NCBI RefSeq assembly: GCF_001514205.1
Contig: NZ_KQ948773.1
Location: 1-64,000 of the forward strand
DNA from: Streptomyces griseoruber
GTDB taxonomy: Bacteria; Actinomycetota; Actinomycetes; Streptomycetales; Streptomycetaceae
DNA length: 64,000 nt
Direction: 5' to 3'
Position numbers and translations under genes: made by a program. Positions 8,149 to 42,875 of the stretch are shown piece after piece (positions within the stretch are counted from its first letter, which is position 1; each line of letters opens with the position of its first letter). A model generated the notes under the pieces. It was not told the DNA's origin. It ran no database searches and saw nothing but the letters and a program-made list of their open reading frames with translations.

Positions 8149-9489
8149 TCAGCCGGTGAAGGCGTCGATGCCCTCCGGGGTGCCCACGCCGGTGGGGCCG
8201 TCGTAGCCCGACTTGGCGGTGCACAGGTAGCTCGCGCTGGAGGAGCAGGTGCCGTTGCTGCCGCTGGTGACGTCGTTCAGGGACGAGGTGCCGAGGTAGG
8301 CGTAGGGGTACGAGGCCGGGTAGTCGCTGCTGCCGGGGGTGCCGGCGAGGGCGTAGACCGCGGCGATGATGGGCGCGGAGGCGCTGGTGCCGCCGAAGGT
8401 GTACCAGCCGGCGGTGACGCCGTAGGAGTCGTAGACGGAGACCCCGGTGGCGGGGTCGGCGACGGCGGAGACGTCGGAGATGGTGCGCTTGGAGCAGCCG
8501 GTGTCGGTCTGCCAGCTGGGCTTGGCGTCGTAGGAGGAGCAGCCGGAGCCGGTGCCCTCGGTGGAGCTGGTGTTCCAGACCTTCTCGGTCCAGCCGCGGG
8601 TGGTGGAGGACGAGGACGACAGGGCGGTGCCGCCCACCGACGTCACGTACTTGGAAGCGGCCGGGTATTCGGCGCCGTAGCCCTCGTCGCCGGCGCTGAC
8701 GGTGATGGCGACGCCCGCGTGGTTGAAGTACGAGGAGTCGTACGAGGTGTCCGAGGAGGACTCGGAGCCGCCGTAGCTGTTGGAGACGTACTTCGCGCCG
8801 AGGGTGACGGCCCGGTTCACCGCGGTGCCGAGGTTGGCCATGGTGGCGGACTTGGCCTCGACGAGCAGGATGTTGCAGTTCGGGCAGGCGGCGCTGGCCA
8901 TGTCGAGGTCGAGGGACTCCTCCTCGGCCCAGCCGCTGTCGGCGGAGGGGAGCGAGGTGGTGGAGCCGGTCTGGCTGACCTTCTTGAAGCAGCCGTTGGC
9001 GGTGGTGCAGGCGGAGAGGCCGTAGTAGGAGCGGTACTTCGCGAGGTCGGCCTCGGCGTTCGGGTCGTCGTAGGCGTCGACGATCGCGATGGTCTCGCCG
9101 GAGCCGTTGTCGGCGGCGGCGTCGGTCAGGCCGTAGGCGTCCTGGAGGTCGGAGGGGCCGTAGCCGGTGGGGCTGGCGGCGGCGGCCTTGGGGGTGACCT
9201 GCGCGGTGTCGCCGGTCCGCCGGGCCTGCGCCTTCTGGAAGGCGGTGGTGCCGCCGGTGACGCGGAAGGAGTCGCAGGCGAGTTCGCCGTGGTGCTTGGG
9301 GGTGGCGCAGGGGGTTGCCGACCAGGTGACCTTCGAGGGTGTGGCGGTGGAGCCGGTGGGGGCCGCGTTCGCGTGGGCCGCGGTGCCGAGGCCGGCGAGC
9401 ACGAGGGCCGCGGTGCCGAGGAGGGAGGCACCGGCACGGCGCCATCTGCCGGGGGCGGCAGAGGGGTTGGGGGAAGTCGTCGTACGCAA
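8149..9489 (-). CDS. Secreted S53 (sedolisin) family serine-carboxyl protease
   Basis: A 446-residue exported protease. The N-terminus has a basic segment and hydrophobic core ending near HANA (about residue 42). Sedolisin catalytic residues are recognisable: Glu190 and Asp194 in AEEESLDLDM (E-x-x-L-D pattern), oxyanion Asp268 in SAGDEG, and nucleophile Ser369 in GGTSASAP. A C-terminal DGPTGVGTP segment resembles the calcium-binding end. The propeptide is short, about 100 residues against nearly 200 in classical sedolisins. The TTG start at 9489 is supported by AGGAG seven bases upstream. It probably degrades extracellular protein. It is monocistronic, with its own terminator. Confidence 0.88.
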   Translation of the reverse strand: MRTTTSPNPSAAPGRWRRAGASLLGTAALVLAGLGTAAHANAAPTGSTATPSKVTWSATPCATPKHHGELACDSFRVTGGTTAFQKAQARRTGDTAQVTPKAAAASPTGYGPSDLQDAYGLTDAAADNGSGETIAIVDAYDDPNAEADLAKYRSYYGLSACTTANGCFKKVSQTGSTTSLPSADSGWAEEESLDLDMASAACPNCNILLVEAKSATMANLGTAVNRAVTLGAKYVSNSYGGSESSSDTSYDSSYFNHAGVAITVSAGDEGYGAEYPAASKYVTSVGGTALSSSSSTTRGWTEKVWNTSSTEGTGSGCSSYDAKPSWQTDTGCSKRTISDVSAVADPATGVSVYDSYGVTAGWYTFGGTSASAPIIAAVYALAGTPGSSDYPASYPYAYLGTSSLNDVTSGSNGTCSSSASYLCTAKSGYDGPTGVGTPEGIDAFTG

Positions 9490-9859
9490 CGGACAGCTCC
9501 TGATGGTGGGTGACAGGGGCGGTGCGGGTGGGGGTGATGCGTTGCCGTCGGTACGTGGTCCCCGGCGGCGGGCGGCGGCCCGCGACGACTGTGCGCTTGT
9601 TGAGTACGCGACAACAAGGAGGGTTGCGGAGTTCTGACTTCCGCCTTACTGAAGGGGGTTGGAGGATTGCTGGGCGATGGTGGGACCATGGTGGGGGGAT
9701 GGGCGGGACTTGACTCGGGGCGCAGGAAGGTCACGGGGTGAAGGCAGCCTTGCCGTCCGACGGGGCGCCTGCCCGCCAGGTGACGGAACAGGGCGGTGTC
9801 GCCAGGGCTGCGTGCGAAGCGCCGTGGACAGTGCCGTACCCCCTTGGGATCATCCGTGC
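9490..9859. other. Intergenic region between the S53 protease and a small ORF
   Basis: About 370 bases without a gene I can support. It holds the AGGAG ribosome-binding site of the divergent protease gene and must contain its promoter. Several short open frames cross it but none has a plausible start, composition or family resemblance. I see no repeat or RNA motif. Confidence 0.5.
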
Positions 9860-10081
9860 ATGGATGAGAACGAAGCACGTGACATCGCTGTCGACTTTCT
9901 GTTGGCCAGCGCGTCGGACGCCGCTGAGTGGAAGATGCAGGGACCGTCCAGGCAGGTCCTGGTCCACTCGACTGGGCGCCGCGAATGCCTTGTCTTCGGC
10001 TTCTGGCCGCCCAGCGGTTCGTCGGAGGATCCCCTTCGGATCGGTGTTGATCCGGAAACGCGCGAGGCCTTCGTGGTGTGA
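9860..10081 (+). CDS. Small hypothetical protein (73 aa)
   Basis: A short acidic protein beginning MDENEARDIAVDFLL and ending GVDPETREAFVV. The pattern of an N-terminal helix, a V-H-S strand and a closing 'VDPETREAFVV' strand resembles small YrhB/Imm35-type proteins, but the match is by eye only and the function is unknown. The ATG at 9860 has no strong Shine-Dalgarno sequence. It stands alone between the protease and the secreted-protein/ABC unit. Confidence 0.45.
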   Translation: MDENEARDIAVDFLLASASDAAEWKMQGPSRQVLVHSTGRRECLVFGFWPPSGSSEDPLRIGVDPETREAFVV

Positions 10082-10268: not shown

Positions 10269-10787
10269 GTGCACAGCACTTTCGTCCGGCGTGCCGTTGC
10301 GGTGGCAGCCGGAGTGTTCATTTCTGCGGGAGTCGTGCCGAGCGCGGCATATGCCATCGACGAAGTACGTGAGTGGAATAGCAAGTCCGAGCCGCTTACG
10401 GAGAAGTCGTACGGCAGTACCGGCAAGGCCTACGGGAAGTGGAAGGTCACCCAGACCTCGGACGGCACCAAGTCCAAGGCCTACGGGTACAGCAAGTTGT
10501 CCTACCAGGCCGACAACCACAAGGTGTACTTCGACCTCGACACTCATCTGAACGCCGGGTACTGCACGCAGGTCAGCAAGTACATGTCGTGCAGCAAGGA
10601 GTACTACTACTACAAGAGTGACGAGGGGAAGCACCACGACAGCAGTGCCTGGACCTACAACACGGCTCAGACGGGTGTGACGGGGGCCGCCGACTACGCG
10701 CGTGCGGGAATGGCCACCTGCCTCGACATACCCGCCCGCCCCGACACCTGCTCGGGCCGGACGTACACCGCTGGCGGAAAGTACTAG
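10269..10787 (+). CDS. Small secreted Tyr/Lys-rich protein upstream of an ABC system
   Basis: A 172-residue protein with a clear Sec signal peptide (basic MHSTFVRR, hydrophobic core, AYA cleavage site near residue 29). The mature part of about 143 residues is rich in Tyr, Lys, Ser and Gly, with motifs such as KAYGKWKV and EYYYYKSDEG, and four Cys that could form two disulfides. I recognise no family. GGGGAGG lies five to eight bases before the GTG start. An ATPase and two membrane proteins follow, so it may be exported by, sensed by or protected against by that ABC unit, but this is inference. Its Cys and Tyr pattern does not fit lactococcin 972 bacteriocins well. Confidence 0.75.
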   Translation: MHSTFVRRAVAVAAGVFISAGVVPSAAYAIDEVREWNSKSEPLTEKSYGSTGKAYGKWKVTQTSDGTKSKAYGYSKLSYQADNHKVYFDLDTHLNAGYCTQVSKYMSCSKEYYYYKSDEGKHHDSSAWTYNTAQTGVTGAADYARAGMATCLDIPARPDTCSGRTYTAGGKY

Positions 10788-10908
10788 TCGATTTCGCCTG
10801 TGGCCCGCCCCGCTCCGGCCCGTCCGAGGTGCTCGGTACCGCCGAGTACATGGCGACGGACGGCCGGGGCGGGCCCGTCCGGGCGCCGGTGCCGGGAGGC
10901 ATTCCGTC

Positions 10909-11640
10909 ATGAGTGAGTTTGCACTGCACTGCGAAGAACTGGTCAGGCGTCACAGGAGCGGGTTCGAGCTGGGCCCGCTCTCCCTTGTGCTGACTCCCGG
11001 GGTGACCTGCCTCGTGGGTCCGAACGGAGCCGGAAAGTCGACCTTCTTCCGGCTTGCGGCAGGGATCGAGAAGCCGAACTCGGGGAAGGTCTTCCTGAAG
11101 ACGGCGGATGGTCCGGACCAGAAAACCACCCTTGGTTATCTCCCGCAGGACCCCGAACTTCCCAAGAAAGCGACCTGCGAGGAATTCCTGCAGTACGTGG
11201 CCTGGGTGCACCGAGTTCCCGCAGCCAACCGGAACGCACACATCACGGTGGCTCTTGAGCGCACCGGGCTGGCGGAGAGAAGGAAATCGCGAATAGGCAG
11301 CCTTTCGGGAGGAATGGCCCGACGGCTCGGCATCGCGGGCGCGCTTGTTCATGATCCCTCGGTTCTGTTCCTCGACGAGCCGACGGTGGGCCTCGACCCG
11401 CGCCAGCGCATAGCCCTGCGCGACACCGTCTCGACAATCAGCGGCGGCCGTATCGTGATCGTCTCGACGCATCTGGTCGAGGACATCCGTGGTCTCGCCG
11501 ACCGGGTGATCGTCCTCAACTCCGGTTCTGTCGTTTTCGACGGCGGTGTGGCCGAGCTGGAGAAGTCGGCGGATTCTGACGCTCCGGGTGACACCGATCT
11601 CGAGAAGGCGCTGGCCACTGTCATGGGGGAGGCGGAGTAG
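10909..11640 (+). CDS. ABC transporter ATP-binding protein
   Basis: A 243-residue nucleotide-binding subunit with Walker A GPNGAGKST, Q-loop GYLPQDPELP, signature LSGGMARRL, Walker B VLFLDEPTVGLD and H-loop STHLVED. It should energise the membrane proteins encoded just downstream. I chose the ATG at 10909, preceded by GGGAGG at the right distance, rather than the longer open frame from 10702. Its stop TAG overlaps the GTG of the next gene. The sequence, including YLPQ.P and DEPTVGLDP.QR, closely resembles the ATPase at 39.7-40.5 kb, so the two belong to one subfamily. Confidence 0.93.
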   Translation: MSEFALHCEELVRRHRSGFELGPLSLVLTPGVTCLVGPNGAGKSTFFRLAAGIEKPNSGKVFLKTADGPDQKTTLGYLPQDPELPKKATCEEFLQYVAWVHRVPAANRNAHITVALERTGLAERRKSRIGSLSGGMARRLGIAGALVHDPSVLFLDEPTVGLDPRQRIALRDTVSTISGGRIVIVSTHLVEDIRGLADRVIVLNSGSVVFDGGVAELEKSADSDAPGDTDLEKALATVMGEAE

Positions 11641-12890
11641 TGCTTTCCGTTCGCTACGTGCTGAAGACGCTGCTGGGGCCTTGGGCGCTCCTGGCGGTGA
11701 TTCCCCTTGAAGTGACGAACTTCGTCCTGCGCGGCATGCCATGGCGCGGTGAGACGCTGTGGACGACCGACTGGTTCGCCATCACGCTGTTCATCACGGG
11801 GCCGATCCTGTGCGGTGCGGCCGCCGTGGACGCAGCCCGTCTGTCCCGGGACGGGAACTTCCACCTCGTGTCGGCGGTACCGCGCCCCTACCGCCCGTAT
11901 CTGCGAGCCGCTGCCTGGGCCGCGCTGCCGGCGGTGGCCGTCCATGTGATCACCGTGTGCGTTGCCCTCGTCTTTGGAGGCTTCTACGGCGACTTCTCGG
12001 CGACCTGGACAGCCGTCGCGCTACTCGTGCAGTGCGCGGCCCTGTGCTGGTACGTGGCCATGGGATCCGCCGTGGGGCGGTTCGCCGGTCCGCTGGTCGC
12101 GGGCATTGCCGCAGCGGCGGGTTCGTTCGCCTTCTCCTACTTCTTCTCCTACCCGGAGGACTCGTTCGGCCTGCTCGATCTCGGCGGAGCGACCGTGTCC
12201 AGGCTGGGATATGAGTACCGGCCCGCCTATCTGCTCACGCAGCTGGTGCTGTTCACGGTGACCGCCGTGGTGGCACTGTTGGTTGTTCCCTCCATCAGTT
12301 CCGGGATCCGCGTCCCGTCCAGGGCCGGGACCGCAGCGCTGGGCGCCGTGCTGGCGGCCGTTGTGCTGAGCCCCCAGGTCCCCCTGACTGATCGGCTCTC
12401 CTCGCATCCCGTGCGTCCGACACAGTGCGTCGGCAAGGCACCGAAGATCTGCGTCTACCCGGAACACCACCGGGTCAACGATCGAACCGTCGAGTACGTC
12501 GAGACCCTGGTGCGGGCCGCGCGGTCGGCGGGCTACGCCGCTCTCGTTCCTGACCGTGTCGATGTCATGAGCCGGACGTATCGGCCGCAGAACCCCGGTG
12601 TGCAGGGCCTTGAGGTCGACCCCGACGGTTATGACAGCGGTGTCGTCGACATCCGGTCCATCGCGGACTCGTTGACGACTCCGTACCACTGCGACGCCCT
12701 CTACGACGACAGCCGGCCGCCCGGCGACAGATACTGGATCCGTCATCACTCGCTGACCAAGACCCTGCTCGACGCGGCAGACGTGCGGTTCGACGACGGT
12801 GAGTACATTCCCGGCTCGCAGGTGCTCACTCCGGAGGCGGCGGGCTCGGTCGTCGCCGACTTCAAGTCCTGCGCGCTGGAGACCCCGTGA
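11640..12890 (+). CDS. ABC transporter membrane protein with C-terminal extracytoplasmic domain
   Basis: A 416-residue protein with about six membrane helices in the first 260 residues, then a soluble domain of about 150 residues carrying four Cys (PTQCVGKAPKICVYPEHHRV, YHCDALYDD and a late Cys). Topology places the soluble domain outside. The GTG start overlaps the ATPase stop and its own stop overlaps the next start (GTGA), so all three are translationally coupled. Substrate is unknown. The layout of helices plus a Cys-containing outer domain is also found in the permease at 40.5-42.1 kb. Confidence 0.85.
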   Translation: MLSVRYVLKTLLGPWALLAVIPLEVTNFVLRGMPWRGETLWTTDWFAITLFITGPILCGAAAVDAARLSRDGNFHLVSAVPRPYRPYLRAAAWAALPAVAVHVITVCVALVFGGFYGDFSATWTAVALLVQCAALCWYVAMGSAVGRFAGPLVAGIAAAAGSFAFSYFFSYPEDSFGLLDLGGATVSRLGYEYRPAYLLTQLVLFTVTAVVALLVVPSISSGIRVPSRAGTAALGAVLAAVVLSPQVPLTDRLSSHPVRPTQCVGKAPKICVYPEHHRVNDRTVEYVETLVRAARSAGYAALVPDRVDVMSRTYRPQNPGVQGLEVDPDGYDSGVVDIRSIADSLTTPYHCDALYDDSRPPGDRYWIRHHSLTKTLLDAADVRFDDGEYIPGSQVLTPEAAGSVVADFKSCALETP

Positions 12891-13510
12891 CGACGGCCTG
12901 GAGCACGGTCCGGGCCTGGTGCGCGGTGCACGCCACGCGACAGGCTGCCCTGCTCCTCGGAGCGACCGCGCTCCTCTCGCTGCTGGGAGCGCGGTCGGCG
13001 CTGTCGGGCCTGGGTGTCTTTTTCTTCGAGACGCCGGTGCCGTTGCTGCTGCTGGTGCCGACTCTGAGCGGGGTGGCGGTCGGGATCGGTTGTCACCGGA
13101 TGGCGCGCGTTCCGCTCCCCGAACCGCCCCGGGTTCTGGCGGCCCGGTTCTTTTGGTGCCTTGGTCTCACCGCCGTGGGCGCGGTGTCGGTCACCGTGGC
13201 GCAGCTTGCTGGATCCCCGGTCGAGGCAGGGGCGAGCCTGCGTAATGTGCTGCTGCACGCGGGTCTCGCGGTTCTCACCACCCTGTTTCTTGGACCGGCC
13301 GTCGCCTGGCTGCCGTCCATGGCTCTGACGCTCGTCGCCATGCTGTACGGCCACTCGCAGTCGGGACCCGAGGTCTACTGGTGGGCAGGCCTCCTGGAGG
13401 ACCAGGTCACCGAAGGGCAGTGGTGGGTTGTCGGCGCGCTGTTCGTGGGTTCCGCGACGACCTACGCGATTGCGGCGCCCGTGCGTGACCGGCGGCTGCG
13501 GATCCGTTAG
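12887..13510 (+). CDS. Small polytopic membrane protein of the ABC unit
   Basis: A 207-residue protein with about five to six hydrophobic helices and no recognised motif. Its GTG start overlaps the TGA of the preceding permease, so it is the third gene of a coupled operon and probably a second membrane subunit. The counterpart in the second ABC unit of this window is the 250-residue membrane protein at 42.1-42.9 kb. It converges on a DUF397 gene, overlapping it by 4 bases at the stops. Confidence 0.8.
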   Translation: MTTAWSTVRAWCAVHATRQAALLLGATALLSLLGARSALSGLGVFFFETPVPLLLLVPTLSGVAVGIGCHRMARVPLPEPPRVLAARFFWCLGLTAVGAVSVTVAQLAGSPVEAGASLRNVLLHAGLAVLTTLFLGPAVAWLPSMALTLVAMLYGHSQSGPEVYWWAGLLEDQVTEGQWWVVGALFVGSATTYAIAAPVRDRRLRIR

Positions 13511-13770
13511 CCGTCGGTTTCCATGTCGGCCACGCCCTCCACGAAGTGGTCGAACTCGCCTGCCTGGACGCCGAGGACGAAGGCGTCCCACTTGCGGCGG
13601 TTCGTCGTGACGACGTTCTCCGGGGCGCTGGTCTCGCGGAGGTAGACGGGGGCCTCGCCGTCGTCGTCCCCGTCTACCTCGCCGAAGGCGATCTCGATCC
13701 ATGGTCCGGGGCCGGTCGCCTCCGGCGGGGCGGCGCGGATCCAGGTGAGGTCGGGGGGGATGTCAGACAT
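13507..13770 (-). CDS. DUF397 protein of a WhiJ-type locus
   Basis: An acidic 87-residue DUF397 protein with W-I-R-A near the N-terminus, a central VYLRETSAPENVV corresponding to the V-x-V-R-D-S-K strand, and the family's ending WDAFVLGVQAGEFDHF. DUF397 proteins are found next to XRE/DUF5753 regulators in Streptomyces and are thought to work with them as paired regulators. It overlaps the second DUF397 gene by 8 bases and is the last gene of the minus-strand WhiJ-like operon. Confidence 0.88.
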   Translation of the reverse strand: MSDIPPDLTWIRAAPPEATGPGPWIEIAFGEVDGDDDGEAPVYLRETSAPENVVTTNRRKWDAFVLGVQAGEFDHFVEGVADMETDG

Positions 13771-13948
13771 GGGGGGCGTCCTTCTTGAGGGCGGTGAGGA
13801 GGGAGAGGAAGGCGGCGGGGGTGGTGGTGAGTATCGCTTCGCGGGGGTCGGCGGATTCGGTGAGATGGATGGTGCGGGGGGTGGTGGCTATGTGGACGCA
13901 GGAGTTGCCTTCGGAGCAGTACGACGATTTCTGCCAGGTCGGGTTCAT
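13763..13948 (-). CDS. DUF397 protein of a WhiJ-type locus
   Basis: A 61-residue DUF397 protein with the N-terminal W-Q-K-S-S-Y-C and NSCVHIA (equivalent to the usual C-V-E-V-A) and a divergent second half (HLTESADPREAI in place of V-R-D-S-K). It lies 11 bases after the XRE/DUF5753 regulator, so co-transcription is likely. Two DUF397 genes behind one regulator is also the arrangement at 53-54.2 kb. Confidence 0.85.
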   Translation of the reverse strand: MNPTWQKSSYCSEGNSCVHIATTPRTIHLTESADPREAILTTTPAAFLSLLTALKKDAPHV

Positions 13949-13959
13949 GGGGGCTCCCT

Positions 13960-14805
13960 TCAGAGCTCGCGCATCACGTGCTGGATGAGGTCTCGGGTTT
14001 TCTCAGGTGAGAGGGCGACGGCCTCGATGCGGGTGAACAGCGTCCGGTACTTGTGCAGCTGCGCCTCGGCATCGAGGAACGCGATGCCGTGCGACTGATC
14101 GAGGTGGACGGTGTCCAGCTGGGCCACCGGACCGTGCGCGTAGTAGATCGACTGACCCGATCCGGGATACGCGCCGGCGTCGAAGGTGATGGCCCGCAGG
14201 GTGATGTGGTCGTGCTCGCTCATGTCCAGCAGGTAATGCAACTGCTCGCGAGCCACAGTGGGGCCGCCGACCTTCATGCGCAGGGCTGCCTCGTGGACGA
14301 TGGCCTCGTACGGGGTCGGGTTGTCCGTGCGGTAGAGGATCGTCTGCCGCTTGACGCGGAACGAGAGCCGGTGCTCGATGTCGGGTGGCGAGAGCTCGGT
14401 GACTGCCTGGCGGAAGATCTCCAGCGCGTAGGCGCGGGTCTGGAGGAGGCCAGGTACGCGGGCGGTCGTCGAGTCACGGATGGCCAGGGCGTGGTGTTCG
14501 AGCTCGGCCAGATCGAGGAGAGCGCCGGGGAGCAGGTCGCGGTACTGCTCCCACCAGCCGCGTGAGCGGTCGGAGGTCATGCCGCTGAGGGCTTCGATGA
14601 GCGGGGTGTCGGCGCAGCCGTAGTGCTGTGCGAGTGCGCGGACGCGCTCGGGGCTCACGCCTACCCGTCCGGCCTCCATGTTGCTGACCTGGGCTTGCTT
14701 GATGCCCATCAGTTGACCGGCCTCGGTCGCGGTCAGGCCCGCTTGCTCGCGGAGTTTGCGCAGCTCGGCGCCGAACCGTAGCTGGCGTCCCGTTGGGTTC
14801 CGCAC
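13960..14805 (-). CDS. XRE/DUF5753 transcriptional regulator, WhiJ-like
   Basis: A 281-residue regulator. Residues about 8-65 form an XRE helix-turn-helix (LRKLREQAGLTATEAGQLMG and QAQVSNMEAGRVG), and the rest is a DUF5753 domain marked by RVPGLLQTRAYALEIFRQAV. Relatives such as WhiJ influence development in Streptomyces and usually sit beside DUF397 genes and a histidine-kinase-like ATP-binding protein, as here. The GTG start at 14805 has AAGGAGG about nine bases upstream. It is divergent from the ATP-binding gene at 15005 across a 199-base gap that should hold both promoters. Confidence 0.92.
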   Translation of the reverse strand: MRNPTGRQLRFGAELRKLREQAGLTATEAGQLMGIKQAQVSNMEAGRVGVSPERVRALAQHYGCADTPLIEALSGMTSDRSRGWWEQYRDLLPGALLDLAELEHHALAIRDSTTARVPGLLQTRAYALEIFRQAVTELSPPDIEHRLSFRVKRQTILYRTDNPTPYEAIVHEAALRMKVGGPTVAREQLHYLLDMSEHDHITLRAITFDAGAYPGSGQSIYYAHGPVAQLDTVHLDQSHGIAFLDAEAQLHKYRTLFTRIEAVALSPEKTRDLIQHVMREL

Positions 14806-16188: not shown

Positions 16189-16245
16189 CCCACGTCTCCC
16201 GTTGCGTCTGAGGTTCCTCTCACTTTGGTGGGACACAGTAGGCGG

Positions 16246-17040
16246 GTGAAGCGAAACGCTCTGCTCGGCGCGATCGTGCTGCTGGCCCTCACCTCCGCCT
16301 CCGAGGCGGCCGCCGACGGCGGGTCCGGGCCGCTCGGGGTGACCACAGTGGCCGCGGCGACGAGGGACGCCGCGCGGGTCGGGGCGCTGTTCCAGGCGGC
16401 CGACGCCGGCCATCTGGCCGGCGCCCACTTCTGTACGGCCTCCGTGGTGCACGCCGTGCACCACAACCTCCTCGTCACGGCCGCCCACTGCCTGAGCGGG
16501 AGCGGCGCGCTCGTCTTCGTACCGGGCTACCGGGACGGCAAGGCGCCCTACGGCGTCTGGAAGGTCGCCCGGGTCTTGCTGCCCGCAGGGTGGGCGAAGG
16601 CGCAGGACGAGGACAGTGACGTCGCGTTCGCGACCGTGGCGGCGTTGGACGGAAGGGAGATCGAGGACGTCGTCGGCGCCGACCGGCTCGCCACCCGCAC
16701 CAACACCACCGGCGCCACTGCTGTCACCGTCACCGGATACCCCAACTCCCATGAGGTCCCCATCCGTTGCACCAACCACCCCACCGCACACAGTGCCACC
16801 CAGCAGCGCATCACCTGCCCCGACTTCACGGGCGGTACGAGCGGCAGCCCCTGGATCAACGGCGAAAACCGCATCGTCGGCATCCTCGGCGGCCACGAAC
16901 AGGGCGGCAGTACGGCCGACATCTCCTACAGCGTGGTGCTGGGGGATGAGGCGGTGGAGCTCTATGAGGATGCGTCCTCTGCCCCTGAGACCTCGAACCC
17001 TCGGGTGATGCGGTGTGCGATCTGGACGGCCGGCCAGTAG
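16246..17040 (+). CDS. Secreted trypsin-like (S1) serine protease
   Basis: A protease of about 264 residues with a signal peptide (VKRNALLGAIVLLALTSASE) and the S1 catalytic triad: His in LVTAAHCL, Asp in DEDSDVAFATV and Ser in GGTSGSPW. The Cys-x-x-S before the His loop and a Cys pair near RCTNHP...RITCPD suggest disulfides. It lacks a PDZ or other extension. The GTG at 16246 was preferred because it starts a compact signal peptide; a TTG at 16225 is possible. It is followed by a kinase gene in the same direction, 86 bases away. Confidence 0.88.
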   Translation: MKRNALLGAIVLLALTSASEAAADGGSGPLGVTTVAAATRDAARVGALFQAADAGHLAGAHFCTASVVHAVHHNLLVTAAHCLSGSGALVFVPGYRDGKAPYGVWKVARVLLPAGWAKAQDEDSDVAFATVAALDGREIEDVVGADRLATRTNTTGATAVTVTGYPNSHEVPIRCTNHPTAHSATQQRITCPDFTGGTSGSPWINGENRIVGILGGHEQGGSTADISYSVVLGDEAVELYEDASSAPETSNPRVMRCAIWTAGQ

Positions 17041-37946: not shown

Positions 37947-38489
37947 GTGAGCGAAACGAGAAGCGACGGGGAGCTGCTGCGGGCCATCGCGGCAGACGCG
38001 GACCGTCACGCCTTCGAGGAGCTGTACCGGCGGTTCGCGCCGTGGCTGACCGCGCGGATGCGCGGCCGCTGCGCCGACGCCGGGATAGTCGACGACGTCG
38101 TGCAGGAGACGTTCCTCGCGGTGTGGCGGGGCAGCGCCCGCTATCGCGAGGAGGGCGACGTGGCGGGCTGGCTGTGGCGCATCGCCGCGCGCCGGCTGGT
38201 CGACGCCCTGCGCGGCGACGGCGCGCGCGGCCGCTTGCGCCAGGCCCTGTCGCGTCTGCGCCACCGGGACGAGGTCTCGGCGGAGGAACGCGTGCTCGCG
38301 GGGGTGGAGCACGGGGACCTCGCCGGGGCCCTCACCCGCCTCTCGCCGGAGCTGCGGGCCGTCCTCCAGGCGACCGTCATCGACGGGCTCACCACCAGGG
38401 AGGCCGCGGTTCTGCTCGGCATCCCGCCCGGCACGGTCAAGACGCGGGCCCTGCGCGCCCGCAAGCAACTGCGGGAGGCGCTGGCATGA
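37947..38489 (+). CDS. ECF-type RNA polymerase sigma factor
   Basis: A 180-residue sigma factor with region 2 (FEELYRRFAPWLTARM, GIVDDVVQETFLAVWRG) and region 4 (LTTREAAVLLGIPPGTVKTR). It should direct RNA polymerase to its own regulon, held in check by the zinc-finger membrane protein encoded just downstream. The GTG start at 37947 has AGGGG only two bases away, so initiation may be weak or another start used. Its stop overlaps the next ATG. Confidence 0.93.
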   Translation: MSETRSDGELLRAIAADADRHAFEELYRRFAPWLTARMRGRCADAGIVDDVVQETFLAVWRGSARYREEGDVAGWLWRIAARRLVDALRGDGARGRLRQALSRLRHRDEVSAEERVLAGVEHGDLAGALTRLSPELRAVLQATVIDGLTTREAAVLLGIPPGTVKTRALRARKQLREALA

Positions 38490-38722
38490 GGCGGATCGTG
38501 GACGGGGCGCGCGCAAGCCGCGCACCCCGGCGGCGCACCGGCCGCACGGGCGGAGCCGCCCTGCGCTGGTACGCGCAGGCGGAGGCCGCGGCCCGCGCGG
38601 GAGAGCGCGCGAGAGGGCACCGGGCCGAGCGCCCGGGCCCGGTGGACGGCGTGCACGACGGCTCGTACGACCGCTCAGACGACGGTGCCGACCGGCACCA
38701 GCCGAGGGAGGCACAGGCATGA
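38486..38722 (+). CDS. Small basic protein between sigma factor and anti-sigma genes
   Basis: A 78-residue Arg-rich reading frame (MRRIVDGARASRAPRRRTGR...) whose ATG overlaps the sigma stop and whose TGA overlaps the next ATG, so it is coupled on both sides. The C-terminal half is acidic and polar (DGSYDRSDDGAD). I recognise no family and it may be a linker frame without function, but the double overlap favours translation. Confidence 0.5.
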   Translation: MRRIVDGARASRAPRRRTGRTGGAALRWYAQAEAAARAGERARGHRAERPGPVDGVHDGSYDRSDDGADRHQPREAQA

Positions 38723-38743
38723 CCGAGGGAGGCACAGGCATGA
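38702..38743 (+). repeat. 21-bp direct duplication of ribosome-binding site plus start codon
   Basis: Two perfect tandem copies (38702-38722 and 38723-38743), each containing GAGGGAGG followed by GCACAGGC and ATG. Both ATGs (38719 and 38740) are in the same frame, so the anti-sigma gene has two complete start signals 21 bases apart. Confidence 0.95.
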
Positions 38744-39582
38744 CATGGCATGTGGCGGAGGACGATCTGCGGGCCTACGCCCTCGGCGAGTTGGCACCGC
38801 CCCTGCTGTGGTCCACCGACACACACCTCACCCGGTGCGCGGAGTGCCGGGCCCGGCTCGCGGCCGGCGTCGACCCCGTGGCGCTGGACACCGCCTGGCA
38901 GCGGCTGGACGCCGAACTGGACGCGCCCCGGCCGAGCCTGACCGAGCGGCTGCTGGTGCGGATCGGCGTGGCCGACCACACCGCGCGGCTTCTGACGGCG
39001 ACGCCGGTGCTGCGCCGCTCCTGGCTGCTGTCGGTGCTGTTCCTCCTGGTCATGACGGTGCTGGCGGTGCGCGTGGCGGACCTGCCCGGGCTGTTCCTCG
39101 CGCTCGCCCCGCTGCTTCCGCTGGCCGGTGTCGCGCTGTCCTACGGCCCTGGCCTCGACCCGACGTACGAGATGGCGGTCGTCGCCCCGCTGCACGGCTT
39201 CCGTCTGCTGATGATCCGCACGGTCGCGGTCCTCACCGCGGGCCTCGCGCTCAACGGCCTGGCGACCCTCGCCCTGCCGGGGTACGGACTGATGGCCCTG
39301 GCCTGGCTGCTGCCCGCCCTCGCCCTCACCACCACGGGCCTCGCCCTCTCCGCCCGGCTCGGCCCGGTCCTCGCGCCCGCCCTGGTCGGCGGCGCCTGGC
39401 TGACCCTGCTGGTCGTGTTGCAGACCCAGCCGCACACCGCCGGCACCCTCGCCCCCTTCACCGCGGTCGGGCAGTCCGCCGCCGCCGGGGTGACGGTCGT
39501 CGCCGCCCTGCTGCTCTACCAGGCCCGGGACCGCTTCGACGCCCGCCCGCTGCGGGGCTTCGCGGACGGGGGCCCGGCATGA
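38719..39582 (+). CDS. Zinc-finger anti-sigma factor, membrane bound
   Basis: A 287-residue protein: N-terminal anti-sigma zinc-binding motif His36-x3-Cys40-x2-Cys43 (HLTRCAECRARL), then about six membrane helices with little outside the membrane. It should hold the ECF sigma factor at the membrane until a signal frees it. Two start codons are available (38719 and 38740) because of a 21-bp duplication. Many helices are unusual for an anti-sigma; it may also sense or be part of the downstream ABC system. Confidence 0.87.
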   Translation: MTEGGTGMTWHVAEDDLRAYALGELAPPLLWSTDTHLTRCAECRARLAAGVDPVALDTAWQRLDAELDAPRPSLTERLLVRIGVADHTARLLTATPVLRRSWLLSVLFLLVMTVLAVRVADLPGLFLALAPLLPLAGVALSYGPGLDPTYEMAVVAPLHGFRLLMIRTVAVLTAGLALNGLATLALPGYGLMALAWLLPALALTTTGLALSARLGPVLAPALVGGAWLTLLVVLQTQPHTAGTLAPFTAVGQSAAAGVTVVAALLLYQARDRFDARPLRGFADGGPA

Positions 39583-39621
39583 CCCCGACCCGCCCCGCAC
39601 CCGCCTCCCCGTCTTCTCGCC

Positions 39622-39648
39622 CTTTCAGGACTTTCAGGACTTTCAGGA
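39622..39648 (+). repeat. Triple 9-bp repeat containing Shine-Dalgarno sequences
   Basis: Three perfect tandem copies of CTTTCAGGA (39622-39630, 39631-39639, 39640-39648), each with AGGA; the last sits eight bases before the GTG of the ABC ATPase. The 73-base gap holds nothing else. Confidence 0.9.
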
Positions 39649-39655
39649 GCCCCGC

Positions 39656-40537
39656 GTGACCATCGACCCTCTCACCGAGCCCAGCACGCTGCGGGCCGAC
39701 GGGCTGGCCCTGCGTTTCGGCGGCACCCGTGCCCTCGACGGCGTCTCCCTCCGGCTGACGCGCGGTGTCACCGGGCTGCTCGGTCCCAACGGCGCCGGGA
39801 AGACCACCCTGCTGCGGGTGCTGGCCACGGCCGTACCGGCCGACGACGGCCGGTTCACCGCCCTCGGCCACGACCCCCGCACCGCCGCCGGCCGCCTGGC
39901 CCTGCGCCGCGAGCTCGGCTATCTGCCCCAGACCCCCGGCTTCCACCCGGACTTCACGGCCTTCGAGTTCGTCGACTACGTGGCGATCCTCAAGGAGCTG
40001 ACCGACCGGGGGGCCCGCCACCGCGAGGTGCGCCGCGTCCTGGACGCCGTCGACCTCTCCGATGTGCGCGGCAAGCGTCTCAAGCGGCTCTCCGGCGGGA
40101 TGCGCCAGCGTGTCGCCCTGGCCGCCGCGCTGGTCGGCGACCCCGGTTTCCTCGTCCTGGACGAGCCGACCGTCGGCCTGGACCCCGAGCAGCGCATGCG
40201 CTTCCGGGACCTGATCGCCCAGGCCGGCGAGGGCCGCACGGTCCTGCTGTCCACGCACCAGACCGAGGACGTGGCGATGCTCTGCCACCGTGTCGTCGTC
40301 CTCGCCGGTGGCCGGGTCCGCTTCGAGGGCACCCCCGCCGAGCTCACCGCCCGCGCGGCGGGCCGGGTCTGGAGCAGCGCGGAACGCGCCCCGGGCGCAC
40401 TGGCGGGCTGGCGCACCGGCATGGGCACCTTCCGCAACATCGGCGCCCCGCCCGCAGGCGCCGATCTGCTCGAACCCACCCTGGAGGACGGCTATCTGCT
40501 GGCCCTGGACGGCGAGAGCGCGGAGGTGACGGCATGA
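39656..40537 (+). CDS. ABC transporter ATP-binding protein of the sigma/anti-sigma operon
   Basis: A 293-residue ATPase with Walker A GPNGAGKTT, Q-loop GYLPQTPGFHP, signature LSGGMRQRV, Walker B FLVLDEPTVGLD and H-loop STHQTED, with a C-terminal extension. AGGAG precedes the GTG. Its stop overlaps the permease ATG. It is closely similar to the ATPase at 10.9-11.6 kb. Confidence 0.93.
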   Translation: MTIDPLTEPSTLRADGLALRFGGTRALDGVSLRLTRGVTGLLGPNGAGKTTLLRVLATAVPADDGRFTALGHDPRTAAGRLALRRELGYLPQTPGFHPDFTAFEFVDYVAILKELTDRGARHREVRRVLDAVDLSDVRGKRLKRLSGGMRQRVALAAALVGDPGFLVLDEPTVGLDPEQRMRFRDLIAQAGEGRTVLLSTHQTEDVAMLCHRVVVLAGGRVRFEGTPAELTARAAGRVWSSAERAPGALAGWRTGMGTFRNIGAPPAGADLLEPTLEDGYLLALDGESAEVTA

Positions 40538-42135
40538 GCCCCACCCCGGCCACGCCCGACGCCCCGGTCACCCCGGCCGGCCCTCCGGCCACACCGCTCG
40601 ACGAGGCGCCCGCCACCGGCTCCGGGCAGCCCGGCGAGCGCCGCCGCTTCCGCGCGGTCCTCGCCCTGGCCCGCTTCGAGACGCACGATCTGCTGACGCA
40701 GATCCAGATCCTCTTCTTCTTCGCCCTCTGCCTCGGCCTCGTCGTTCTGCAGATGGTGCGTCAGGAGGGCATGGACGACTACCCGATCCTCAACATGGTG
40801 GACCGGGACACCCAGACGGTGCCCCCGCTGTTCGCCCTCGCCGTGCTCGTCTGCGCCAACGCGGCCGCACTGCGTTCCCGGAAGTACGGCACGGTCCATC
40901 AGTTCGACGTCCTGGCCATGGACTCCTGGCGGCGCACCCTCGCCCACATCCTGTCCGTGGTGCCCTTCGCGGCGCTCACCGCGCTCCTCGTCCTCGCGCG
41001 GTACACCCGGGAGGCGCTCAAGCCGGGCGCGATCGGCCACGGCTCGCTCGGCGAACTGGTGGTGGGGCCCCTGACGGTCCTGCTGGCCGGGGTCGTGGGT
41101 GTGCTGCTGGCCCGTCTGCTGCCCTCGTCCTTCACGCCCATACTGTTCGTCATCGTCTTCTACCTGGCCGTGGTCGTCGCCTCCGAGCTCGCCGGCCAGG
41201 GCAAGGGCTGGGCCTGGCAGTGGCTCAGCCCGGTCTCCCTGGACTCCGTACCCAGCGGCGACCCGGTCCCCTCCGACCTGCTCGGCCGCCCCGCCGCCTG
41301 GCACGCCCTCTACCTCCTCGGTCTGTGCGCCGTGGTGGCCTGCGCGGCCCTGCTTCTGTCCGGCGGCCGCACCCGCGCCGTCAAGGCGGCCACGGCCCTC
41401 GCCCTGGCGACCACCATGGCCGGTGTGATCGGCCAGGTGCCCCGGGACACGGCGGCTCTGGAGGAGGCCCGCAAGGTGGCGTCCGAGACCCCGCTGAAGG
41501 TGCAGTCCTGCACCAAGTACGACGGCTCGACGTACTGCTCCTTCCCCGAGTGGAACGGCGTACGGGACGACTGGTCCGGTGTGGTCCGGCGGGCGCGGTC
41601 CCTGGCGGGCGGCACGGCCGCGACCAGGCCGCTGACGATCCGCCAGCGCATCGACGTCACCGGCGGAGTGGAGCAGGACAGCTCCCTCACCGCCCTGACC
41701 ACGCCCGGCGAGGTCACGGTCGGCACACACTGGGGCGGCAACCGCGTCCCCGAGTTCGCGGTCGGCGTCGCCACCGTCCTCGTGACGGGTACGGAGGAGG
41801 CGACGACCGGGGAACTCTGCGGCGACGCCCGCGCGGTGACGATCATGTGGCTGGCCCTGGGCGCCGACCCCACCCCGCTGGCCACCTTCCGTGACGTCCG
41901 GCTGGACGACAGCGACAAGGGCTCCGCCGTGATCCTCGCGCCCACCAGCGGGTTCTCCCTGGGGGCGGATCAGACGACGGTTGTCCGGGAGCTCCTGGAC
42001 CGCCCGCGAGCCGAGATCACCGAACGGGTCAAGACCCACTGGACGGAGCTGACCTCCGCGTCGACGACGACGGCCCAGGCCGCGAAGCTGCTGGGCGTCC
42101 CGGTTCCGAAGGAGGCGGAGAAGTGCGAGGAGTAG
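40534..42135 (+). CDS. ABC transporter membrane protein with large outer domain
   Basis: A 533-residue protein: Pro/Ala/Thr-rich cytoplasmic N-terminus, about six helices up to residue 310, then about 220 extracytoplasmic residues with Cys residues (VQSCTKYDGSTYCSFPEWNG, TGELCGD, and a terminal Cys). The ATG overlaps the ATPase stop and its own end overlaps the next gene by 13 bases. The helix-plus-outer-domain plan mirrors the 416-residue permease at 11.6-12.9 kb. Substrate is unknown. Confidence 0.85.
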   Translation: MSPTPATPDAPVTPAGPPATPLDEAPATGSGQPGERRRFRAVLALARFETHDLLTQIQILFFFALCLGLVVLQMVRQEGMDDYPILNMVDRDTQTVPPLFALAVLVCANAAALRSRKYGTVHQFDVLAMDSWRRTLAHILSVVPFAALTALLVLARYTREALKPGAIGHGSLGELVVGPLTVLLAGVVGVLLARLLPSSFTPILFVIVFYLAVVVASELAGQGKGWAWQWLSPVSLDSVPSGDPVPSDLLGRPAAWHALYLLGLCAVVACAALLLSGGRTRAVKAATALALATTMAGVIGQVPRDTAALEEARKVASETPLKVQSCTKYDGSTYCSFPEWNGVRDDWSGVVRRARSLAGGTAATRPLTIRQRIDVTGGVEQDSSLTALTTPGEVTVGTHWGGNRVPEFAVGVATVLVTGTEEATTGELCGDARAVTIMWLALGADPTPLATFRDVRLDDSDKGSAVILAPTSGFSLGADQTTVVRELLDRPRAEITERVKTHWTELTSASTTTAQAAKLLGVPVPKEAEKCEE

Positions 42136-42875
42136 AGGAGACCGGGGGAGTGAGGGACGACGGAGTGGAGGCCAAGGAGATGGAGGCCGCCCAGGTGACG
42201 GCGGACGCGAGGAGAGACACCGCGACCCTGCTGCGCCCGCTGCTGGTGCCGGTCTGGCGCACCCTGCCCCGGCGGGCCCTGACGATCGCCGGCGCGGTGG
42301 GCCTGCTGCTCGCGGCGAGCACCCGCCTCCCCGACCATGCCCCGGGCGCCGGGCCGGGCCTGTTCGTCCTGCGGCTCACGGCACTCTCCGGCGCCCTGGG
42401 CCTGGCCTTCCTCCTGGACGACCCGGCCCGCAACACCAGCGCGACCACCCCGGTCGCCCGCCCGCTGCGGACGGTCCTGCGCCTGGCGATGGCGCTCCCG
42501 CTGACCGCCCTGTGGTGGACGACGGCCCTCCTCCTCGTACCGTCGCCGACCCGCCCCCCGCTCCTCCCGGTCACCCTTCAGGCGGCGGCGACGACCGCGG
42601 CCGCCCTGGCCCTCGCCACGGTCGCCGTCCGTTTCACGGACTCCCCGGAGGTGGGCAGGAGCACGGCGATATGCCTGCTCACGGGGGCCGCGGTGGCCGT
42701 CCTGACCCCCAACCGCTGGGGCCTGCTGGCCACACCGGCCGACCCCTGGTGGGAGCCGACGCAGCTGCGATGGGCGGCGGTCCTGGGGGTGACGCTGGCG
42801 GTGTGCGCGCTGTGGACTCCGGAGCCCCTCGGACAGGGTCTGCTGCGGCGGACGGCGACGACGAGCGGCCGCTGA
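42123..42875 (+). CDS. Polytopic membrane protein, second membrane subunit
   Basis: A 250-residue protein with a charged N-terminus of about 45 residues followed by five to six helices. It is the last gene of the sigma-factor operon and the positional equivalent of the 207-residue membrane protein at 12.9-13.5 kb. The start at 42123 (GTG) is one of several; in-frame GTG 42150 or ATG 42180 would shorten the tail. Confidence 0.78.
   Translation: MRGVEETGGVRDDGVEAKEMEAAQVTADARRDTATLLRPLLVPVWRTLPRRALTIAGAVGLLLAASTRLPDHAPGAGPGLFVLRLTALSGALGLAFLLDDPARNTSATTPVARPLRTVLRLAMALPLTALWWTTALLLVPSPTRPPLLPVTLQAAATTAAALALATVAVRFTDSPEVGRSTAICLLTGAAVAVLTPNRWGLLATPADPWWEPTQLRWAAVLGVTLAVCALWTPEPLGQGLLRRTATTSGR

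What the first reader, a model, noticed from the sequence alone, without database searches (positions are those of the whole stretch)
10269..13510. Small secreted Tyr/Lys-rich protein with its own three-gene ABC unit
A signal-peptide protein of unknown family with four Cys precedes an ATPase, a permease with an outer Cys-containing domain and a second membrane protein; the three ABC genes are translationally coupled. The secreted protein may be a toxin, a signal or a substrate, with the ABC unit giving immunity, sensing or export.
Basis: inference. Interest (0 to 1): 0.55.

Follow-up and report, generated by a model that had tools for sequence, protein, structure and literature searches.

The report
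Secreted protein paired with ABC transporter
A small exported protein of an unnamed family is encoded next to its own three-part membrane pump, and the same pairing recurs in related bacteria with several unrelated exported proteins, which suggests toxin-and-protection or signal-and-sensor pairs.

Summary
A 172-aa protein with a Sec-type signal (10269-10787) is followed by an ATPase, a permease with an outer four-Cys domain and a second membrane protein; the three ABC genes overlap stop to start. I found 16 relatives of the secreted protein elsewhere, down to about 20% identity, most of them in two other families of the class. Thirteen lie directly upstream of an ATPase-permease pair, one has the ATPase and then its contig ends, one stands beside a decayed ABC unit, one is cut off. 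The pairing is wider than one family: in the window's genus the same permease family accompanies at least four further secreted-protein groups. For one group, searched without any ABC sequence, 23 of 29 copies sit directly upstream of such ABC genes and 2 have none nearby. Sister ABC units, one in this window, carry a sigma-factor/zinc-finger pair instead. No Pfam or NCBIfam family covers P0001 or P0003. Best reading: an extracellular bacteriocin-like effector with ABC self-protection, working like lactococcin 972 but not a member of it. The main rival is ligand plus ABC sensor. Function is untested, and decayed loci point both ways.

The parts
10269..10787 (+). Small secreted protein P0001, 172 aa (stop included in the coordinates); likely disulfides C99-C108 and C151-C161
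   Evidence: family alignment; disulfide pairing is inferred from which Cys are gained or lost together
10269..10355 (+). Sec-type signal peptide, residues 1-29, cleavage after AYA
   Evidence: By eye and by a hydropathy rule; A29 invariant and A27 nearly so in 12 members
10795..10885 (+). GC-rich hairpin between secreted gene and ATPase gene, without a T run; possible attenuator or transcript stabiliser
   Evidence: Fold of 10780-10915: -74.4 kcal/mol, z -2.11, 9 of 200 shuffles as good
10909..11640 (+). ABC ATPase P0002
   Evidence: Pfam ABC_tran 6.6e-26; 41-42% identical to the ATPases of L046 and L047, 38% to P0005
11640..12890 (+). ABC-2-like permease P0003, membrane part followed by an outer four-Cys domain (about 12402-12887)
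   Evidence: no Pfam family
12887..13510 (+). Second membrane protein P0004
   Evidence: counterpart seen in 11 of 12 complete relatives looked at
37947..42875 (+). Related unit in the same window: sigma factor, zinc-finger membrane protein, ATPase P0005, permease P0006, membrane protein P0007; not part of the cassette, sister branch of its ABC family
   Evidence: zf-HC2 is only a sub-threshold Pfam match (E 0.026)

Best explanation
A two-part extracellular effector and self-protection module. Shown: a small protein with its own Sec-type signal is encoded immediately upstream of a dedicated ABC unit, and the pairing is kept while the sequences diverge to about 20% identity. Inferred: the secreted, disulfide-bearing protein acts outside the cell as a narrow-range bacteriocin-like agent on related bacteria, probably at the membrane or wall. 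Inferred: the ATPase-permease pair recognises it through the outer four-Cys domain and removes it from the producer's membrane, giving immunity. The ABC platform stays and the effector is exchanged, which would explain several unrelated secreted groups on one ABC type.
For: Pairing in 13 of 16 relatives, the other three cut or decayed. At least four further secreted groups beside the same permease family; the window family and F3 share no similarity beyond the signal region. F3 searched on its own: 23 of 29 directly upstream of the ABC genes. Patchy spread: 1 of 246 genus genomes with P0001 itself, 2 of 121 with the family profile. Lower GC3 (0.76-0.84) than 43 of 50 other genes called in the window (median 0.93). 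Tandem secreted genes (L135, L149). Secreted gene lost or broken with the ABC unit kept in L106, L109 and L114. Four outer Cys in 13 of 13.
Against: No killing or protection was tested. ABC unit broken while the secreted ORF is open in L079 and L087, probably also L105, which an active toxin should not allow. Two F3 genes have no such ABC gene within about 5 kb. No match to known bacteriocin families. One of 12 members matches the rodlin (surface protein) model at 8.5e-4. The sister units with sigma factors suggest signalling.
Confidence: 0.5

Rival explanations
1. Ligand and sensor: the secreted protein is a signal or a probe of the envelope, and the ABC unit senses it through the outer domain and changes gene expression or envelope state without killing.
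For: 28 of 62 related ABC units have a multi-membrane-span gene before the ATPase, 25 of them with a zinc-finger-like motif, and sigma-factor-like ORFs precede several. The permease groups are homologous (hhalign probability 98, E 2.5e-13). Loss of the ABC unit with the secreted ORF kept (L079, L087) is harmless under this reading.
Against: No sigma or anti-sigma gene was seen inside the secreted-type cassettes examined; exchange of unrelated secreted groups on one platform fits effector exchange better.
Confidence: 0.27
2. Handling unit: the ABC unit helps folding, disulfide formation, release or surface assembly of the secreted protein, or exports something it needs.
For: Strict adjacency; conserved Cys on both sides; one of 12 members weakly matches rodlin, a surface protein.
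Against: The secreted proteins have Sec-type signals of their own; two F3 genes exist without the ABC genes, and ABC units exist without an intact secreted gene (L106, L109, L114).
Confidence: 0.15
3. Chance neighbours: the secreted gene and the ABC unit are unrelated in function.
For: A loose secreted-like filter passes 8 of 55 genes called in the window, so one such neighbour is not rare.
Against: The adjacency persists at about 20% identity in different surroundings and recurs with unrelated secreted groups.
Confidence: 0.03

Closest known systems
Lactococcin 972 cluster (lcn972-orf2-orf3)
   Different: None of 12 members of the window family matches the bacteriocin family in Pfam or NCBIfam; P0003 and P0004 match no family of its membrane protein. 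Here there are two membrane proteins and an outer four-Cys domain.
Lantibiotic protection transporters (LanFEG type)
   Same: One ATPase and two membrane proteins; P0002 matches the lantibiotic-protection ATPase model TIGR03740 at 6.9e-31, far below its cut-off, as one of 201 ABC models.
   Different: P0003 and P0004 match no such permease model; no modification enzyme genes beside the cassette in the ORF lists; the partner is a 143-residue mature protein.
Sigma-factor/zinc-finger ABC units of the same genus
   Same: Homologous ATPase (42% over 226 residues) and permease with outer Cys domain.
   Different: Sigma factor and zinc-finger membrane protein in place of the secreted gene.

Membership tests
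Lactococcin 972 systems | Secreted protein matches the lactococcin 972 family model | tested here: not met
   No match at E up to 1 in Pfam or NCBIfam for any of 12 members of the window family
Lactococcin 972 systems | Membrane protein of the lactococcin 972-associated type | tested here: not met
   P0003 and P0004 have no Pfam match and no NCBIfam match apart from a chance-level one, E 0.014
Lactococcin 972 systems | ATPase of the lactococcin 972-associated type | tested here: inconclusive
   No such model among the best 25 of 201 NCBIfam families listed for P0002; the rest are not shown
Lactococcin 972 systems | Antibacterial activity with ABC-dependent immunity | not testable with these tools
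   Needs an experiment
Lantibiotic protection (LanFEG) systems | Permeases match lantibiotic-protection models | tested here: not met
   P0003 and P0004
Lantibiotic protection (LanFEG) systems | Adjacent lanthipeptide modification genes | tested here: inconclusive
   None recognised by eye in the ORF lists; no model search of the flanks was run
ABC-2 type transporters | ABC ATPase gene coupled to multi-span permease genes | tested here: met
ABC-2 type transporters | Permease matches an ABC-2 membrane model | tested here: inconclusive
   P0003 none; its relative P0010 only ABC2_membrane_3 at E 0.13, below cut-off
Anti-phage defence systems in PADLOC | Specific match of cassette proteins to PADLOC models | tested here: not met
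   Six proteins scanned: only the ATPase P0002 matches, 23 ATPase-containing models, best mad3 6.8e-29; P0001, P0003, P0004, P0012, P0014 none

The most novel reading that the evidence does not exclude
A large undescribed class of actinomycete effector cassettes: one ABC platform with an outer four-Cys domain has been coupled in evolution both to many unrelated Sec-secreted small proteins (as immunity or receptor) and to sigma-factor/zinc-finger pairs. Each cassette would be a self-contained toxin-immunity or ligand-receptor pair, and the platform a handle for finding protein antimicrobials that homology searches miss.
Probability: 0.4. Interest if true: 0.78.

Novelty: new variant of a known kind. 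Interest (0 to 1): 0.62.

Why it matters
If the toxin-immunity reading is right, the permease profile is a search key for protein bacteriocins whose secreted partners belong to no named family; 23 of 121 genomes searched in the window's genus already carry at least one such cassette by the permease route. If the sensor reading is right, it gives paired ligands and receptors and a link to sigma-factor signalling that gene removal can test.

Tried and rejected
Close-relative pattern scans of the 84,980-species collection with P0001 and with P0003 gave 413 and 26 pattern matches and no confirmed relative. That shows only that short exact peptides are not shared, since full-length relatives at 38-43% were found later. 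Of the 22 of 394 genomes with a match at E 0.1 or better, only the window's own and two others are significant; the rest (best E 0.002) were not followed. Phage and plasmid collections gave no relative of P0001 and plasmids none of P0012; P0003 in plasmids gave one 54-residue match at E 0.02, not followed. AlphaFold of P0001 alone (mean pLDDT 38.1) and of P0003 with P0006 (37.7) was unusable, so no fold search was run. Weak PDB matches (ParE-1 toxin, E 0.2; antibody and photosystem chains) and single weak Pfam matches (for instance Leukocidin, E 0.037, one of 12) were treated as chance; the rodlin match (8.5e-4, one of 12) was noted and not followed. The 73-aa ORF upstream (9860-10081, P0011) has no Pfam match and was not pursued. 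One candidate promoter was found (9825-9853; 0.3 expected) and not pursued.

Rows dropped: the loose filter also flagged L116, L133 and L147 as secreted, but they match none of the secreted-group profiles or queries. In one search, 8 of 78 loci gave no permease match and 8 had no ATPase within 400 bases upstream of the permease; 5 of the latter have the order secreted-permease-ATPase. L161 and L162 were not analysed. The 78 loci are a part of the 48 places and the 84. The printed downstream counts of 13 of 29 used a wrong strand rule; one search repeats the count with the right one (23 of 29).

Literature: nine searches returned 8, 0, 12, 0, 0, 0, 0, 2 and 0 papers, and none of the listings described this pairing. 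Only open-licence PubMed Central papers are held, and other wording may exist. I read passages of PMC4055356 and only listings of the others.

Full report
Setting. The window is contig C11:1-64000 of a 10.2-Mb genome, 70% GC. From gene content it is probably Streptomyces; the tools give only a genus code, so the name is my inference. The four genes have GC3 0.76-0.84, against 0.845 or more in 43 of 50 other genes called in the window, median 0.93.

The observation. Secreted protein (10269-10787), ATPase (10909-11640), permease (11640-12890) and second membrane protein (12887-13510) are all present, the ABC genes overlapping. The secreted gene is not coupled: 121 bases separate it from the ATPase gene and can form a hairpin of -74.4 kcal/mol in a 136-nt stretch (z -2.11, 9 of 200 shuffles as good). 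It has no T run, so it may be an attenuator or a stabiliser.

Named families. P0001, P0003 and P0004 have no Pfam match and P0002 is an ordinary ABC ATPase. NCBIfam gives nothing for P0001 and P0004 and one chance-level match for P0003. Profiles find no solved structure beyond chance. Of 12 members of the secreted family one matches the NCBIfam rodlin model at 8.5e-4.

Relatives of the secreted protein. With P0001 as query the window's genome is the only one of 246 in its genus. A class-wide search of 394 genomes found two full-length relatives (43% and 38%, E about 1e-23), in another family of the class. Both are directly followed by ATPase, permease and second membrane protein. A profile of the three found 11 places, these two included, in 9 of 245 genomes of that family. 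A 12-sequence profile in the 394 class genomes added four: two in a third family (L076, L077), a third place in G572 (L078) and a second place in the window's own genome (L079). L111, in a second genome of the window's genus, joins at 6.1e-14; with the enlarged profile the family is in 2 of 121 genomes of the genus. That makes 16 relatives outside the window in 13 genomes. Thirteen have ATPase and permease directly downstream (L046, L047, L059-L063, L065-L067, L076, L077, L111). L078 has the ATPase and then its contig ends. L064 is cut off by the contig end. L079 has the start of an ATPase run into the outer part of a permease by an internal deletion, with a second membrane protein after it. 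The weakest relatives by sequence (E about 3e-4) also have the ABC genes. The second membrane protein was seen in 11 of the 12 complete cassettes looked at; it was not found in L076 and not sought in L111. By eye, small HTH-like ORFs precede the cassettes of L061, L064 and L067.

Conservation. A29, W36, P42, L43, G49, G56, V86, G97, W128, R145, D159 and S162 are invariant in 12 members. The first Cys pair of P0001 (99, 108) is shared with P0012, P0013 and L059, which lack the second. The second pair (151, 161) is shared with all eight other rows. I infer disulfides 99-108 and 151-161; some rows have further Cys in the first region. The permease outer domain has four Cys in 13 of 13 cassettes, the third offset in L077. 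Over these 13, pairwise distances of mature secreted protein, ATPase, permease membrane part and outer part correlate (Mantel r 0.74-0.85, p 0.0001 each). This shows shared inheritance and does not separate contact from common descent.

The ABC family is larger. The window holds a second unit (37947-42875: sigma factor, zinc-finger membrane protein, ATPase, permease, membrane protein). Profiles of the two permease groups match at probability 98, E 2.5e-13, over 400 columns. A profile of four permeases hits 37 of 101 genus genomes (48 places), one of 14 permeases 58 of 121 (84 places). I analysed 78 loci drawn from these places. In 62 an ATPase lies within 400 bases upstream of the permease. 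In 28 of the 62 the gene before it has three or more membrane segments (25 with a zinc-finger-like motif; one lies further off). In 28 of the 78 loci a secreted gene of one of the groups defined here is found: the window's family (L111); F2, about 110 aa, motif GCRGYWYTT (L087, L088, L103, L105, and related L107); F3 with F6, about 140 aa, motif G.ES.RW and YYF (18 loci); F4 (L114, L115); F5 (L112, L113). Counting the window, these lie in 23 of the 121 genomes. In five loci the order is secreted-permease-ATPase. The window family and F3 share only the signal region (hhalign probability 48, 25 columns). F3 has no Pfam, NCBIfam or PDB family, and seven proteins of the other groups have no Pfam family.

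Test from the secreted side. A profile of F3, which contains no ABC sequence, finds 29 places in 23 of 121 genomes. Its members were first met beside ABC genes, so the profile is not wholly independent. In 23 of 29 an ATPase or permease of this type starts downstream on the same strand, 60-301 bases away, or 686 where a second secreted gene intervenes. Of the six others, three (L178, L189, L190) lie in a cluster of four F3 genes around one permease and one ATPase in G049, one (L186) lies on the opposite strand beside the cassette of G083, and two (L182 and L184, seen further in L193 and L194) have no such ABC gene within about 5 kb.

Decay in both directions. The secreted gene is lost or broken and the ABC unit kept in L106 (by eye the last residues of an F3 protein remain), L109 (a transposase-like ORF abuts) and L114 (signal region out of frame). 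The ABC unit is broken and the secreted ORF open in L079, L087 and probably L105. Orphan protection genes are usual around bacteriocins (recalled), but an unprotected open toxin gene is not, so this evidence cuts both ways.

How it most likely works. The Sec-type signals mean that the ABC unit is not needed for export. [quoted passage not shown] The cassette is not a member: its secreted and membrane proteins match neither that family nor lantibiotic protection. The sigma-linked sister units keep a ligand-sensor reading open at about one chance in four. No step of function is shown here.

Novelty. The kind (secreted effector plus ABC partner) is known. These secreted groups and this permease family were unnamed in the libraries scanned, and nine literature searches listed no description of the pairing. 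I rate it a new variant of a known kind, with the wider platform as the more novel case.

Noticed in passing
37947-42875: Sigma factor, zinc-finger membrane protein, ATPase, permease with outer Cys domain and membrane protein: a sister unit of the cassette's ABC genes in the same window.
   Followed up: partly
L079:5355-7696 (G000:C2, window's own genome): A second cassette of the same secreted family whose ATPase and permease are run together by an internal deletion while the secreted ORF is open.
   Followed up: partly
L143, L153, L155, L156, L158: A different gene order, secreted gene then permease then ATPase, with the same kinds of parts.
   Followed up: partly
L195 (G049:C1:6104000-6121000): Four F3 secreted genes on both strands clustered around one permease and one ATPase.
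   Followed up: partly
L059:1465-9943: The cassette of G810 sits among genes that look like flagellin, CsrA and CheA, so it seems to have been inserted into a flagellar region (names by eye).
   Followed up: no
L047:11961-13991: Transposase-like ORFs directly downstream of the cassette of G332 (by eye).
   Followed up: no
8149-9489 (-): Large secreted protein that looks like a sedolisin-type peptidase (by eye), divergent from the cassette.
   Followed up: no
9860-10081 (+): 73-aa ORF P0011 just upstream of the secreted gene; no Pfam match.
   Followed up: partly
13507-14805 (-): Two small ORFs and an HTH regulator, looking like the common DUF397/XRE set of this genus (recalled).
   Followed up: no
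16225-17040 (+): Signal-peptide protein that looks like a trypsin-type peptidase (by eye).
   Followed up: no
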